Assembly (NCBI GenBank): GCA_031213475.1
Contig: JARUPZ010000005.1
Location: 9,108,848-9,172,847 of the forward strand
Reading direction: 5' to 3'
Length of the DNA: 64,000 nucleotides
From: Nereocystis luetkeana
Lineage: Eukaryota; Sar; Phaeophyceae; Laminariales; Laminariaceae
The notes beneath the pieces were generated by a model. It saw only the letters and a program-made list of their open reading frames with translations. It had not been told where the DNA came from and ran no database searches. The translations under genes and the position numbers were made by a program. Positions 18,721-55,568 of this stretch are shown here, piece by piece; position 1 is the first letter of the stretch, and each line of letters begins with the position of its first letter.

Positions 18721-18852
18721 AATACGGGGGACCGTAGTTAACGGAACCAAATATTGTTATTAATTATTACAGTAAAAATAAATGGTTAAATATCTAGTTT
18801 TTTTATGTATACCATAGGTCCTACCTGGTATTAACTATGGTCCCCCGCAATA
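18721..18852 (+). mobile_element. MITE-A copy 5, with micro-insertion
   Basis: Longer than usual. TACCTGGTA at 18822-18830 replaces a plain TA inside the right terminal repeat (GGTCC-TA-TTAACTATGG in other copies), and there is additional AATTATTAC-type padding in the middle. Confidence 0.9.
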
Positions 18853-18867
18853 ATAGCCGAAAGTGCT

Positions 18868-19330
18868 ATTCCCCTGAAAGAGCCTCGAATGAGCGGGGAT
18901 GTATCTCTACTATAATAATAATACTAATAATAATAATAATAATAATAATAATAATAATAATAATAATAATAATAATAATAATAATAATAATAATAATAAT
19001 AATAATAATAATAATAATAATAATAATAATAATAATAATAATAATAATAATAATAATAATAATAATAATAATAATAATAATAATAATAATAATAATAATA
19101 ATAATAATAATAATAATAATAATAATATGTATCATGTCGCAGTGGTGGCGGCGGCGGCGGCGGCGGGAACCGGCGGCGGCGGCGGCGACGGTGATCCGTT
19201 GCGGTTGCTCCTTCCCTCCTCTTTAGATATACCGGTATTATAGCTAGCCCGCTAGTTTTTCGGGGTGCAAACACAAACACAGGGACCGCATGTTCGCGGT
19301 AGACTACCAGGTAGGTGTACTGTGGTAGAA
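18868..19330 (+). repeat. R9 repeat carrying a (TAA)n array and CGG run
   Basis: Order: AAAGAGCCTCGAATGAGCGG, (TAA)n at 18913-19127, a (GGC)n tract at 19146-19187, then AGATATACCGGTATTATAGC and GGTAGACTACCAGGTAGGTG. The same order, inverted and split by a LINE-like insert, is at 45100-46745. Confidence 0.8.
18913..19127. repeat. (TAA)n microsatellite, ~215 bp
   Basis: A nearly pure TAA array. The asparagine/isoleucine/tyrosine frames across it are artefacts. Confidence 0.97.
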
Positions 19331-19500
19331 CGTGTTGTAAGGATTGCCCTGTGGGCTGGGTAATAGTGAATAGGTCGATGCTTCGTCCCTATACATAGCT
19401 CAGTATAGTAGGGAGAAAACGCCTCCACATAACATGTATGTGTGACATCGTCGAGGACACGGGTTTTCGAATCTCCCTTCGAACGTTTCTTTGAGAGAAA
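19331..19500 (+). mobile_element. SINE-3 fragment
   Basis: Matches 57890-58010: GGGTAATAG..., CATAGCTCAG (A-box side), GTGTGACATCGTCGAGGACA and CGGGTTTTCGAATCTC (a B box with one extra T). Confidence 0.6.
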
Positions 19501-19514
19501 CCCAATTTACCACT

Positions 19515-19825
19515 CACTGCAGTACTGGGTCAGTGTCCGTGCCTGATTCCTTATCCTAGAGAGATAATAATTCGTAGTCTGTGGTCACAGACCATGAGGA
19601 AAACCGAGAGAAAAAATAATCGCAATTTGATGGGTAAACCAAGTGAAATGCCAACGTACCGGGCACGAGAGCACAGCAACACAACAAATGGTGCCAGACC
19701 AGAAAATAAGAACAAAAAGACGACATGAAAGAAACAACCGAACTATGAAATGAAGCAGAATACGAGTGACTAACAGATCAGAGAGGCCTAGGAGGAAACC
19801 GAGAGAACAGCAACATGCACCATAG
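19515..19825 (-). mobile_element. LINE 3' end fragment
   Basis: GGGTCAGTGTCCGTGCCTGA and CTGTGGTCACAG match the terminal region of the LINE family. The AGACCAGAAAATAAGAACAA block recurs at 20185-20215 beyond the intervening R1/TAA/MITE-A insertions. Confidence 0.6.
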
Positions 19826-19867
19826 ATCATGCTGCACATTGTCGGATGGCAAGGGAAATAATACGAG
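19826..19867 (+). repeat. R1 3' end
   Basis: GATCATGCTGCACATTGTCGG, then GATGGCAAGGGAAATAATACG, leading straight into the (TAA)n array. Confidence 0.8.
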
Positions 19868-20038
19868 TCATAATAATAATAATAATAATAATAATAATAA
19901 TAATAATAATAATAATAATAATAATAATAATAATAATAATAATAATAATAATAATAATAATAATAATAATAATAATAATAATAATAATAATAATAATAAT
20001 AATAATAATAATAATAATAATAATAATAATAATAATAC
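19868..20038. repeat. (TAA)n microsatellite, ~170 bp
   Basis: Continues from the R1 tail and ends at MITE-A. Confidence 0.97.
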
Positions 20039-20147
20039 TATTACGGGGGACCATAGTAAGTAGGACCTAATATTGCTAGTAAAAATAGGGAATTATATAG
20101 GTTTTTGTACGTATCGTAGGCCCTATTTACTATGGTCCCCCGTAATA
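20039..20147 (+). mobile_element. MITE-A copy 6
   Basis: Full-length and inserted at the edge of the (TAA)n array, GTAAGTAGG subtype. Confidence 0.9.
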
Positions 20148-20326
20148 GGTACGAATAATCATAATCATAATAGAATAATGATGCCAGACCAGGAAAAAAG
20201 AACAAAAAATACATTATTAGGAGAGAAACAACACGATTCTGACATGAAACAGAGTACGAGGAGGGACAAATAGTTCAGAATACGAAGCCTTGGAAAGGAT
20301 GCTATTATTATTATTTCAGAAGAAAA

Positions 20327-52700: not shown

Positions 52701-52949
52701 ATGCCACATCCGGGAGATAAGATACCATACCCTGAATATCACACCCGGGTGATAGGATATCACACCCCCTGAGATTAATTCCCGACACGGTTTTTGTCCA
52801 TAAGAAAGGGGGGTGCAATCACAAAACGAAAATGCTCGCTGTGGAAAAAAAAAAGAAGGTCTCGTGCGAGGAGACCTTTCAACGAGGAGGAGTTTGACGA
52901 GTGGTACTATATGTGCAGTAGGGGCAGGGGGGGGGGCGTGTACTCTATA
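52701..52949. other. Unassigned stretch
   Basis: A short GATATCACACCC direct repeat near 52735-52770 and nothing else recognised. Confidence 0.4.
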
Positions 52950-53185
52950 GGAGATATGTACTCGATCTCATGCATGGCCGTAGTCGTATGACCATAGACT
53001 CTCGCATCCCTACAATGCCGGGACGGAGCATGTCGGGGTTTCACCGACCAGGCTAGACATTGCTTGCATACCAAGCGCGAAGCGCCGTGAGGTGTCTGGC
53101 GAGTCGCATGAAGGGTGAGCTGCGCCCTACTAAAGACCGCTTTTGAGGCGCGGACTTGCATATATATAGATGACAGCTTCAATGA
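52950..53185 (+). repeat. R7 repeat, copy 3
   Basis: CATGCATGGCCGTAGTCG through ACCGCTTTTGAGGCG, the closest match to the window start. A run of ~19 G follows at 53195. Confidence 0.75.
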
Positions 53186-53219
53186 GTTGATCGTCGGGGG
53201 GGGGGGGGGGGGGGCACTT

Positions 53220-53924
53220 TTATGTCCCGTGAATATTTTCGCGCGATGAGAGCCATGCGGCCGAGTGCCCGTCTCATGGACTGGCGTTCTCGTGTCTGCC
53301 ATGTTTTTGTTTTTTTCGCGCGATGTTTACCAGGAGGGGAAGTGTGTTTAGGGTTACTCTGCGCCGACAAACTATATCGGCTGTCTAACCTTGAGTTGAG
53401 ACGCAGAGCCCCTCGTCCTGGTGGTAAAAATGGGGGGGGGTATATATACCCTACTATACGGTTCTGCACGGTTTTGCACGTGAGGATGTGGATTATCGCA
53501 CAGGGGTGATGGGATCGTTTTTCTGGCACTGCGTCCTCTCGACAACGCCCGATGTTATACTTCGAACTTTATAAGAAACGTCGATTTGGTGTCCAGGCCA
53601 AAACAAAAACGCCTCGTTATCTCTTTTTCTCCGACCTTGATCTACAGCTAAATAACGACAGAGCTCGTGCGTGCTCGTACGTGTGATTTAACGGTGCCTG
53701 CTGAGAGGGGAGAAGCGTCTACGGTACTCAACCTATACCGGGAGGGGAGAAGCGTCCACTTACGCCACTGGGCAGCTTCTCACGCTCTACAACACCAGAA
53801 ACGTACTCGGGGAACGGAGGTTCGAAAAGGGAACAAAACTACGGAGGGAGCACGGGGAACGAAAGAAAACAAGAAACAAGGGACCAAAATATTATATATA
53901 TATATTTATATATTGACTTTCACA
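53220..53924. other. Unassigned stretch
   Basis: Several short frames and a GAGGGGAGAAGCGTC direct repeat at 53705 and 53742. No recognised gene. Confidence 0.4.
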
Positions 53925-55018
53925 CTTCGCTGAGCTCAGAACGGCACACCACAAACTCCTCCTACGGATCATTGGCTTCCAGCGCCGGCAACGCACGGAC
54001 CACCTCATGTCGTACGCCAAGGCCCTCAAAAAGGCACCATGCGAGAGCGTTGAGACGACCATCCGCAAACGACGCCTCCTCTTTGCGGGGGCCGTACAGC
54101 GGACGACCAATGAGCGGCTGACCCACCGGGTGATGTTTGGGACGACGGCTGGTGGGGAGAACCCGGGACGAGGCCGATCGGAAAAGAACTGGGCCCAATG
54201 CCTAGCAGACGACCTCAGGGTTTTGCAAGCCACCGAGGGGTCCACAGAAAGCTTCCCTCTGCTGTTCCGAGTAAAGACGTTGTTATGGCCGAGGGCGGCT
54301 AAGAAGAGCGGGAAGTGGTACCGGGGGGTCGTCGAAGCGGCGGACTGCTTCATGGCGAGGTGGCACGGGGACGAGGCACAGAAGAGCCGGCTGCGCCACG
54401 CAGCAGAGGACGCCAAGAACGGCGACAAGGGGAGGGGGGGAGGGGGGGAGGGGCAGCTGTTCTGATACAACTGTCGACGAATGCAGAAACGAAATCATTA
54501 AATGATAGATCGGGTGGCTAGGTATCGGTTCGACTAGTTTTTTACAGACTTTTGCCTGTATCTCCCTCTCTTTCGTGTTGCTTCGTCTGTGCAGCAGATA
54601 CCTGCCCTTCCTGAGTGCGTATGCTGTCCGTCTAGCAGCCTTTCTGAAGTCCTCACGTCGTTTGCATTCTGTTTTTTCTCCCTTTCTTTTCTTCTTTTTT
54701 TCTTTTTTTCATTTCAGATTTTCGTTTTTCTGGTTTTATTGTCTTTCGCTCTTATTTTTCCGGTCTTGCTTGTGTTGTTGTGTTCTCGTACCCGGTACGC
54801 TGACACTTCACTCGCTTGATACTTGAATTTGCGATTTACTTTTATTTTTTGGGCTTCCTCTGTCTCACAGTGTGTGACCACAGAATCAGTATCTCTCTAG
54901 GATAGGGAATCAGGACGGACACTGGGTGTACTGACGAAGCTGAGTAGAAAGGACGATTTAATGTGAAGACAACAACAACAACAACAACAACAACAACAAC
55001 AACAACAACAACAACCAG
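53925..55018 (+). mobile_element. LINE 3' end with intact C-terminal coding segment
   Basis: Coding remnant to 54465, then a T-rich untranslated region and the terminus TTTAATGTGAAGACAACAAC with a CAA array of ~50 bp (54965-55016). The 5' truncation point is near 53925. Confidence 0.85.
53929..54465 (+). pseudogene. LINE ORF2 C-terminal fragment
   Basis: The open frame starts upstream of the first ATG (LAELRTAHHKLLLRIIGF) and continues through RKRRLLFAGAVQRTTNERLT, GKWYRGVVEAADCFMARWH and a glycine-rich end. It corresponds to the region after the reverse-transcriptase core; the catalytic part is absent. Confidence 0.82.
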
Positions 55019-55064
55019 AATCAATCGGTGCCTCCCGGATAAGGATGGAGATGCGTGAGAAGAC

Positions 55065-55373
55065 CTAGAAGATGCGCATGTGGCGGTCGAGACTGTTCGT
55101 CTGGCGGTGCTGTGTCGGCGCTCCTGACCAGTAGAGTAAGATGCGGCGCCGGAAGCGTTGAAGGTCCATCTCGCGTTCCCTGGAAGGGCCTAGAAGTCCA
55201 GCCCAGCGGGCCTCGTACAGAACGGCGATGGCCCCGCCGCGGCCAGATGGCCCCGCCGCGGCGGCGGCCGCGTACGAGTTGACGGCCGGTGATCTGCTCG
55301 ACGTCGAGGCGTTCCCAGGTAGAGATTCAGAGTTAGTCCGACTGATCGCTGAACTCTGTGTCTCTTGCGCCAA
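55065..55373 (-). pseudogene. Fragment of the retrotransposon integrase chromodomain region
   Basis: The minus frame GGAIAVLYEARWAGLLGPS...RRRILLYWSGAPTQHRQ matches residues ~738-790 of the integrase at 4703-7492. The part just before it (VEQITGRQLVRGR) lies in another frame because GCGGCGGGGCCATC is duplicated. It is therefore a frameshifted, truncated relic of the same family. Confidence 0.85.
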
Positions 55374-55454
55374 TTTTCTTCTTTTGTTACGAGTGACGAT
55401 CCGATCCTACACGTACGTGTTTTCGTAACACAAAATGTTTCGTATTAACCTTTC

Positions 55455-55568
55455 TATTGCAGGGGACCATGTTAAATAGGACCTACGGTACACACAAAAG
55501 CCTATATGTTTACCTATTTTCACTGGCAAAGTTAGGTCCTACCAGGTATTTACTACGGCCCCCGTAAC
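55455..55568 (-). mobile_element. MITE-A copy 28, with micro-insertion
   Basis: GGTCCTATTTAC is expanded to GGTCCTACCAGGTATTTAC (55536-55554). Termini are worn (TTGCAGGGGACC). Confidence 0.9.

What the first reader, a model, noticed from the sequence alone, without database searches (positions are those of the whole stretch)
18822..55548. TACC(A/T)GGTA: a 7-bp micro-insertion at TA dinucleotides, seen by filled/empty comparison
Nearly 40 exact TACCWGGTA words occur in 64 kb, where well under one is expected by chance on both strands. Comparing repeat copies shows most testable cases are insertions of exactly CCWGG plus one TA at an existing TA. In MITE-A: 18822, 21826, 49030, 49489 and 55540. 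In a LINE end: 25834 (two units, versus one TA at 26270). In R5: 47195 versus 15277. In a tandem repeat: 50966 and 51045. The sequence is palindromic except for a central A/T. That is what results when identical 5-nt 3' overhangs CCAGG anneal with one A:A mismatch, by analogy with Tc1/Sleeping Beauty footprints (3-nt stagger). Inference: excision scars of an abundant, still unseen TA-targeting transposon with CCAGG or CCTGG ends and an unusually wide stagger.
Basis: partly seen in the sequence, partly recalled or inferred. Interest (0 to 1): 0.88.

Follow-up and report, generated by a model that had tools for sequence, protein, structure and literature searches.

The report
Excision scars of an unseen transposon
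This brown-alga genome is peppered with a nine-letter mark that looks like the scar left when a mobile DNA element jumps out, yet the element itself was not found where we looked.

Summary
The window has 40 exact TACCWGGTA (about 0.8 expected, order-3 Markov). The 465-Mb assembly has 182,395, against 1,744 for the reversed word. In about 297 kb read, 21 of 125 words have a partner lacking exactly the 7 bp, against 19 of 1,107 other TA-N5-TA words. The host looks like a brown alga.

Sites show a palindromic target preference: W-A at -7/-6 in about half of flanks, against 14%, and R-TA-Y, as a dimeric TA-specific transposase would give. A form lacking the mismatched centre (TACCGGTA, 25,126 against 9,325) shares the preference. 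This fits joining of 5-nt CCWGG overhangs, as in Tc1/mariner footprints but wider.

The source was not found: no inverted-repeat element with such ends in the sample, none at 100 listed places of a hotspot, no DDE_3 match. PF24964 and PF01359 did not complete.

Best reading: excision footprints of a low-copy or vanished TA-targeting cut-and-paste transposon.

The parts
18822..18830 (.). scar TACCTGGTA in a MITE-A copy
   Evidence: exact 7-bp insertion against many copies
21826..21834 (.). scar TACCAGGTA in a MITE-A copy, hotspot place
   Evidence: exact 7-bp insertion
22361..22376 (.). double scar in a MITE-A copy: degenerate TACGAGG then TACCTGGTA at 22368
   Evidence: 14 bp absent from other copies
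25834..25849 (.). tandem double scar TACCAGGTACCTGGTA in a LINE-like end
   Evidence: 14 bp absent from copy near 26.3 kb
47195..47203 (.). scar TACCAGGTA in repeat R5
   Evidence: exact 7-bp insertion against copy near 15.3 kb
49030..49050 (.). complex scar: one unit, CCAGGG, then near-copy of the flank in a MITE-A copy
   Evidence: 21-bp insert, not a clean 7-bp case (sequence)
49489..49497 (.). scar TACCAGGTA in a MITE-A copy, hotspot place
   Evidence: exact 7-bp insertion
55540..55548 (.). scar TACCAGGTA in a MITE-A copy
   Evidence: exact 7-bp insertion
964..972 (.). TACCAGGTA in AT-rich sequence
   Evidence: 7-bp-less partners in L016; AT-rich, weaker
29695..29710 (.). tandem TACCTGGTACCTGGTA
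   Evidence: word match only
44075..44169 (.). three words (44075, 44123, 44161) in AT-rich sequence
   Evidence: word match only
50966..51053 (.). two words (50966, 51045) in 81-bp tandem units
   Evidence: word match; partner units do not differ by exactly 7 bp
56717..57004 (.). four words (56717, 56863, 56922, 56996) in or beside a 28-bp minisatellite
   Evidence: not shown to be insertions
19305..19313 (.). word shared with the repeat copy at 45167
   Evidence: both copies carry it, uninformative
45167..45175 (.). word shared with the repeat copy at 19305
   Evidence: both copies carry it, uninformative
847..63911 (.). remaining exact words, starts: 847, 3502, 8545, 10744, 12780, 18647, 22446, 23667, 33245, 40379, 43811, 58375, 59945, 60947, 61330, 63822, 63903 (9 bp each)
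   Evidence: word match only

Best explanation
TACCWGGTA marks excision footprints of a cut-and-paste DNA transposon. A dimeric TA-specific transposase inserts the element at TA (duplicating TA), preferring sites with W-A about 7 bp away on either side and R-TA-Y. On excision it cuts one strand at the tip and the other 5 nt inside the element, so each flank keeps a 5-nt tail CCAGG (or CCTGG). The tails anneal except for one A:A or T:T in the middle; repair leaves A or T, giving TA-CCWGG-TA. Less often the mismatched base is lost (CCGG), an extra G may be kept (CCWGGG, hinting that the sixth base of the end is G), or nearby sequence is copied in (49030). Shown: the exact insertion, its abundance, the target preference, the CCGG form. 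Inferred: the excision step, the 5-nt stagger, the end sequence. Not shown: the element and its transposase, which is probably low in copy number or extinct.
For: Excess: 182,395 against 1,744. Exact insertions at TA. Target preference: W-A at -7/-6 in 71 of 140 left and 65 of 140 right flanks against 2,548 of 17,657 TA sites; TA at +/-7 31% against 8%; R-TA-Y on both sides in 73 of 125. Independent contexts: 125 of 126 non-tandem sites have different 8+8-bp flanks. Centre 59 A, 67 T. TACCGGTA 25,126 against 9,325, with W-A 0.38 at 16 sites. Extra base is G in 11 of 14, W-A 0.54 at 12 sites. Sleeping Beauty works this way with 3 nt (PMC7827188 passages).
Against: No element. No DDE_3 match. 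Known footprints are shorter and more varied: 0-4 bp for Passer, 1-4 bp for Stowaway/Osmar5, and in rice only 8 of 94 putative excisions were perfect. The extra-G form is weak: GTA follows 11 of 391 TACCWGG and 23 of 993 other CCWGG (p 0.57); only with TA-followed words set aside is it 11 of 125 against 23 of 868 (p 0.002). Forms with C or G at the centre (8 sites, W-A 0.19) and with two extra G (2 sites, 0) do not show the preference. At the MITE hotspot the centre is 64 A to 36 T in the first 100 listed (hand count), so part is inherited.
Confidence: 0.64

Rival explanations
1. Direct micro-insertion: a TA-specific enzyme cuts the target and a constant 5-nt sequence is added (templated or carried in), without a larger element ever having been there.
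For: No resident element seen; the insert is very uniform; the target preference would be the same.
Against: The form lacking the mismatched centre, the templated complex case at 49030 and the half-and-half A/T centre look like repair of annealed overhangs. No known enzyme does this (recalled).
Confidence: 0.16
2. Programmed or domesticated excision: TA-bounded elements are removed by a host-owned transposase, as with ciliate internal eliminated sequences, leaving a scar.
For: TA boundaries, huge number and absence of elements from the assembly.
Against: Scars seem to decay with time (130 one-mismatch forms beside 126 exact in 264 kb; most control words have 16-83), so they are inherited rather than remade each generation. 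No such programme is known in brown algae (recalled).
Confidence: 0.09
3. Not an insertion system: a motif kept by selection or spread by replication slippage (for example a protein-binding site or a short tandem unit).
For: The word is palindromic, and tandem units occur (6 exact tandems in 264 kb); four window words lie in or beside a minisatellite.
Against: Exact insertions at TA with a preference 7 bp away. Tandems fit re-insertion, since a scar puts a TA 7 bp from its own TA (inference).
Confidence: 0.06
4. A single repeat family that contains the word was amplified.
For: 1,384 words sit at one place of MITE-A, with unequal A and T there (hand count).
Against: That is under 1% of 182,395; 125 of 126 sampled non-tandem sites have different flanks.
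Confidence: 0.02

Closest known systems
Sleeping Beauty / Tc1-mariner excision footprints
   Same: TA target and duplication; the footprint equals the 3' overhang of the non-transferred strand cut (PMC7827188 passages); TAC(A/T)GTA logic with a central mismatch (recalled)
   Different: 5 nt instead of 3; no element or transposase found here
Stowaway / Osmar (plant mariner) footprints
   Same: TA with leftover terminal bases (PMC1925063 passages)
   Different: those keep 1-4 bp and vary; here CCWGG dominates
Ectocarpus Mariner-Tc1 families
   Same: brown alga; 17 families and almost 12,000 copies reported, mostly MITEs (PMC12477816 passages and section 5 part 2)
   Different: no footprint of this kind in the passages seen; 'excision' does not occur in that text; supplements not readable here
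Paramecium internal eliminated sequences
   Same: TA-bounded removal on a genome-wide scale (recalled; PMC3464196 seen as a listing)
   Different: developmental and leaving a single TA (recalled); here a 7-bp scar that seems inherited

Membership tests
IS630-Tc1-mariner superfamily | insertion at TA with TA duplication | tested here: met
   CCWGG plus one TA gained at an existing TA; the element's own insertion is inferred
IS630-Tc1-mariner superfamily | TA-flanked footprint made of terminal bases | tested here: inconclusive
   form fits but 5 nt is longer than the 0-4 bp in the papers seen and the termini are unknown
IS630-Tc1-mariner superfamily | element with terminal inverted repeats | tested here: inconclusive
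   none among 112 non-scar pairs in the sample, best 12 of 25; three low-complexity pairs only; the whole genome was not scanned
IS630-Tc1-mariner superfamily | DDE/D transposase in the genome | tested here: inconclusive
   PF13358 none; PF03184 28 places, four read, no matching ends; PF24964 and PF01359 did not complete
Harbinger / ISL2EU (PF13359) | transposase next to TA-CCWGG ends | tested here: inconclusive
   57 places; the 8 loci read are one repeat with internal scars and no such ends; 49 not read
Ciliate-type programmed excision | developmental excision by a host transposase | not testable with these tools
   would need germline and somatic DNA of the alga

The most novel reading that the evidence does not exclude
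A TA-specific cut-and-paste transposon lineage of brown algae that cuts one strand 5 nt inside the element, almost never gains copies, and has written one footprint per jump: about 180,000 scars with hardly any resident element. The scars are themselves good targets, because they place a TA 7 bp from each TA, so they breed tandem scars.
Probability: 0.38. Interest if true: 0.88.

Novelty: new variant of a known kind. Interest (0 to 1): 0.76.

Why it matters
Footprints are usually seen one at a time. Here one occurs about every 2.5 kb, a record of jumps that can be counted, dated and mapped without the element. It makes target choice, repair outcome and transposition history in brown algae directly measurable, and points to a transposase with unusual cutting geometry. 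It also shows how a genome can be marked by a transposon that repeat annotation would miss (inference).

Tried and rejected
Rejected: chance; one amplified repeat; scars of MITE-A itself, whose ends are TTACGGGGG. TAGGWCCTA as a second scar: MITE-A carries this word near its ends (consensus), but I did not test the places outside MITE-A. A resident element in L004 1441-4691: the reading frames there look like host genes to me (no database search). A candidate end CCAGGGAGTGAA from 49030: its AGTGAATA is a near-copy of the flank, and its genome count did not complete.

Led nowhere: the tandem word in viral contigs gave 9 loci, each with 2 or 3 words, no cluster. Polymorphic scars among three 10-kb near-identical copies: none; both scars are shared. 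Literature: 119 papers hold TACCAGGTA, 20 listed, none about transposons by title; 3 papers hold TACCTGGTA and 'transpos', none about such a footprint by title. No listing named such a footprint; open-licence papers only, so this is no proof that none is in print.

Never answered (server busy): PF24964; PF01359 at 105, 109, 122; TACCWGGGTA at 106, 115, 121, 126; TACCWGGGAGTGAA at 98. Other requests were also busy at first and answered later. One search ran without alignments (unsupported gap costs) and was redone. One search failed (my coordinates were out of frame) and was not repeated.

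Full report
Observation. The window holds 40 exact TACCWGGTA, against about 0.8 expected from an order-3 Markov model. It lies in a 465,085,209-base assembly in which the word occurs 182,395 times, against 1,744 for the word read backwards. In 26 sampled pieces (280,567 bases) it has 133 occurrences against 2.9 expected, the highest ratio of TA-N5-TA words seen at least five times. 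The first named relatives of an integrase frame in the window are from Ectocarpus sp. CCAP 1310/34, at 62% identity, below six unnamed hits, with Undaria-labelled proteins further down. I take the host to be a brown alga; the species is not known to me.

Is it an insertion? In gapped self-alignments the words at 18822, 21826, 47195, 49489 and 55540 are 7 bp absent from partner copies; 25834/25841 and 22361/22368 are 14 bp, two units. Four words at 56.7-57.0 kb lie in or beside a minisatellite and are not shown to be insertions. A blind test deleted 7 bp from every usable TA-N5-TA word in 32 pieces and looked for the resulting site elsewhere. 21 of 125 TACCWGGTA had one (140 words in all, 15 dropped by the filters), against 19 of 1,107 other words; among repeat-spanned sites it was 21 of 35 against 19 of 343. 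In 16 of the 21 at least one partner is free of CCWGG; in 5 the partners carry another unit close by. Two of the 19 control hits, CGAGG and CCTCG, are one letter from CCWGG.

How it got in. The flanks carry a palindromic preference centred on the TA: W-A at -7/-6 in 71 of 140 left and 65 of 140 right flanks, against 2,548 of 17,657 TA sites. TA itself at +/-7 is 31% against 8%. R-TA-Y holds on both sides in 73 of 125 sites. Beyond about 8 bp the flanks are close to background. Pooling the two halves builds symmetry into the consensus, so left and right were also tested apart. A dimeric integrating enzyme would give this. A scar places a TA 7 bp from its own TA, which may explain why tandems are frequent (6 exact tandems in 264 kb).

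How it got out. The insert is a palindrome except for its centre, where A and T are about equal (59 and 67). Two identical 5-nt tails would anneal with one mismatch there. The prediction that repair should sometimes drop the mismatched base is met: TACCGGTA has 25,126 places against 9,325 for its reversed control, and its flanks show the preference (W-A 0.38 against 0.14, 16 sites, two of them with minisatellite-like flanks). Control words such as TACGCGTA, TACATGTA, TACTAGTA, TACCTA and TACWGTA lie at 0 to 0.14; TAGCGCTA (3 sites) and TAGGCCTA (1 site) are too few to judge. A single extra base beyond CCWGG is G in 11 of 14 cases, with 6 of 15 in control words, and those 12 sites show 0.54. 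This form is less secure: over all words GTA is no more frequent after TACCWGG than after other CCWGG (11 of 391 against 23 of 993, p 0.57); only with TA-followed words set aside does it stand out (11 of 125 against 23 of 868, p 0.002). Forms with C or G at the centre (8 sites, 0.19) do not show the preference. Decay alone does not easily give so much TACCGGTA: scars look about 7% diverged per site (130 one-mismatch forms beside 126 exact; my estimate with a background near 45), and one-base deletions are normally much rarer than substitutions (recalled).

In Sleeping Beauty the same logic holds with 3 nt (PMC7827188 passages). Stowaway and Osmar5 footprints keep 1-4 bp of the terminal repeat (PMC1925063 passages), Passer leaves 0-4 bp (PMC9976928 passages), and in rice only 8 of 94 putative excisions were perfect (PMC4423477 passages). 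Five nucleotides and this uniformity are unusual, and count both as the novelty and as a point against.

Where is the element? In the sample no pair of TACCWGG and CCWGGTA ends shows matching inner sequence (112 non-scar pairs, best 12 of 25; three pairs are AT-rich runs or clustered scars). A sharper test used a frequent scar place inside MITE-A, a 105-bp MITE with TTACGGGGGACC ends (103 matches in 274 kb). TAAAAACCTACCWGG occurs 1,541 times on the two strands together; 1,384 continue TA. Of the first 100 listed, 6 do not. Those 6 were read: two have the extra G, two have a mutated TA, one is a double unit with a mutated middle TA, one breaks into telomere-like CCCTAA repeats. None shows an element. 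The other 151 or so places not followed by TA were not read. A hand count of the first 100 gives 64 A and 36 T, so part of these were inherited with MITE copies. DDE_3 found nothing. DDE_Tnp_4 found 57 places; the eight loci read are one repeat (99.1-99.97% identity to the first), over 9.8 kb long in the three copies extended, with two shared internal scars and no CCWGG-ended pair (one copy). DDE_1 found 28; the four read show no suitable ends. PF24964 and PF01359 did not complete.

Reading. The best-supported account is excision scars of a TA-specific cut-and-paste transposon with a 5-nt stagger. The load does not need many resident copies: at about 7% divergence and an assumed 1e-9 to 1e-8 mutations per site and generation, 182,395 scars mean roughly 0.003 to 0.03 fixed scars per genome and generation (inference; it ignores scars copied with repeats). 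A few restless elements that do not multiply could do that. Against it stands the missing element. The main rival is direct insertion of a constant 5-nt sequence.

Limits. The sample is the window, 20 chosen 10-kb stretches and loci fetched for transposases or the hotspot, so it is not strictly random. Of the papers, only the passages and sections cited were seen.

Noticed in passing
window 39382-39486 and many others: MITE-A: 105-bp MITE, TA-flanked, ends TTACGGGGGACCATAGTTAA; 103 matches (94 near full length) in 274 kb, so it may be one of the commonest repeats of the genome.
   Followed up: partly
window 20829-20935, 36017-36107: A second TA-flanked inverted-repeat element, ends (TTA)ACCCTTTTAGRAC...GCAGTC.
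   Followed up: no
L029, L030, L031 (and L021-L028): A repeat over 9.8 kb long, 98.3-99.7% identical in the three copies extended, carrying an open DDE_Tnp_4 frame of 294 aa and two shared scars; perhaps a giant DNA transposon like those reported in Ectocarpus.
   Followed up: partly
L047 about 161-230: A MITE-A copy breaks after TACCAGG into three telomere-like CCCTAA units and then resumes near the MITE end: possibly a break at the scar site healed with telomeric repeats.
   Followed up: no
window 37723-38400, 47324-47936, 18912-19127: Very long trinucleotide runs (GTA/TAG/ATA), up to 226 copies.
   Followed up: no
L012 1-5000 (right of the window): At least 5 kb of N directly after the window end: an assembly gap or a withheld stretch.
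   Followed up: no
L043 981 and L001 741: Two places share AGTACCC then TACCTGGGGTATG(C/T)ACGTACG: a rarer longer form of the footprint, or a small repeat.
   Followed up: no
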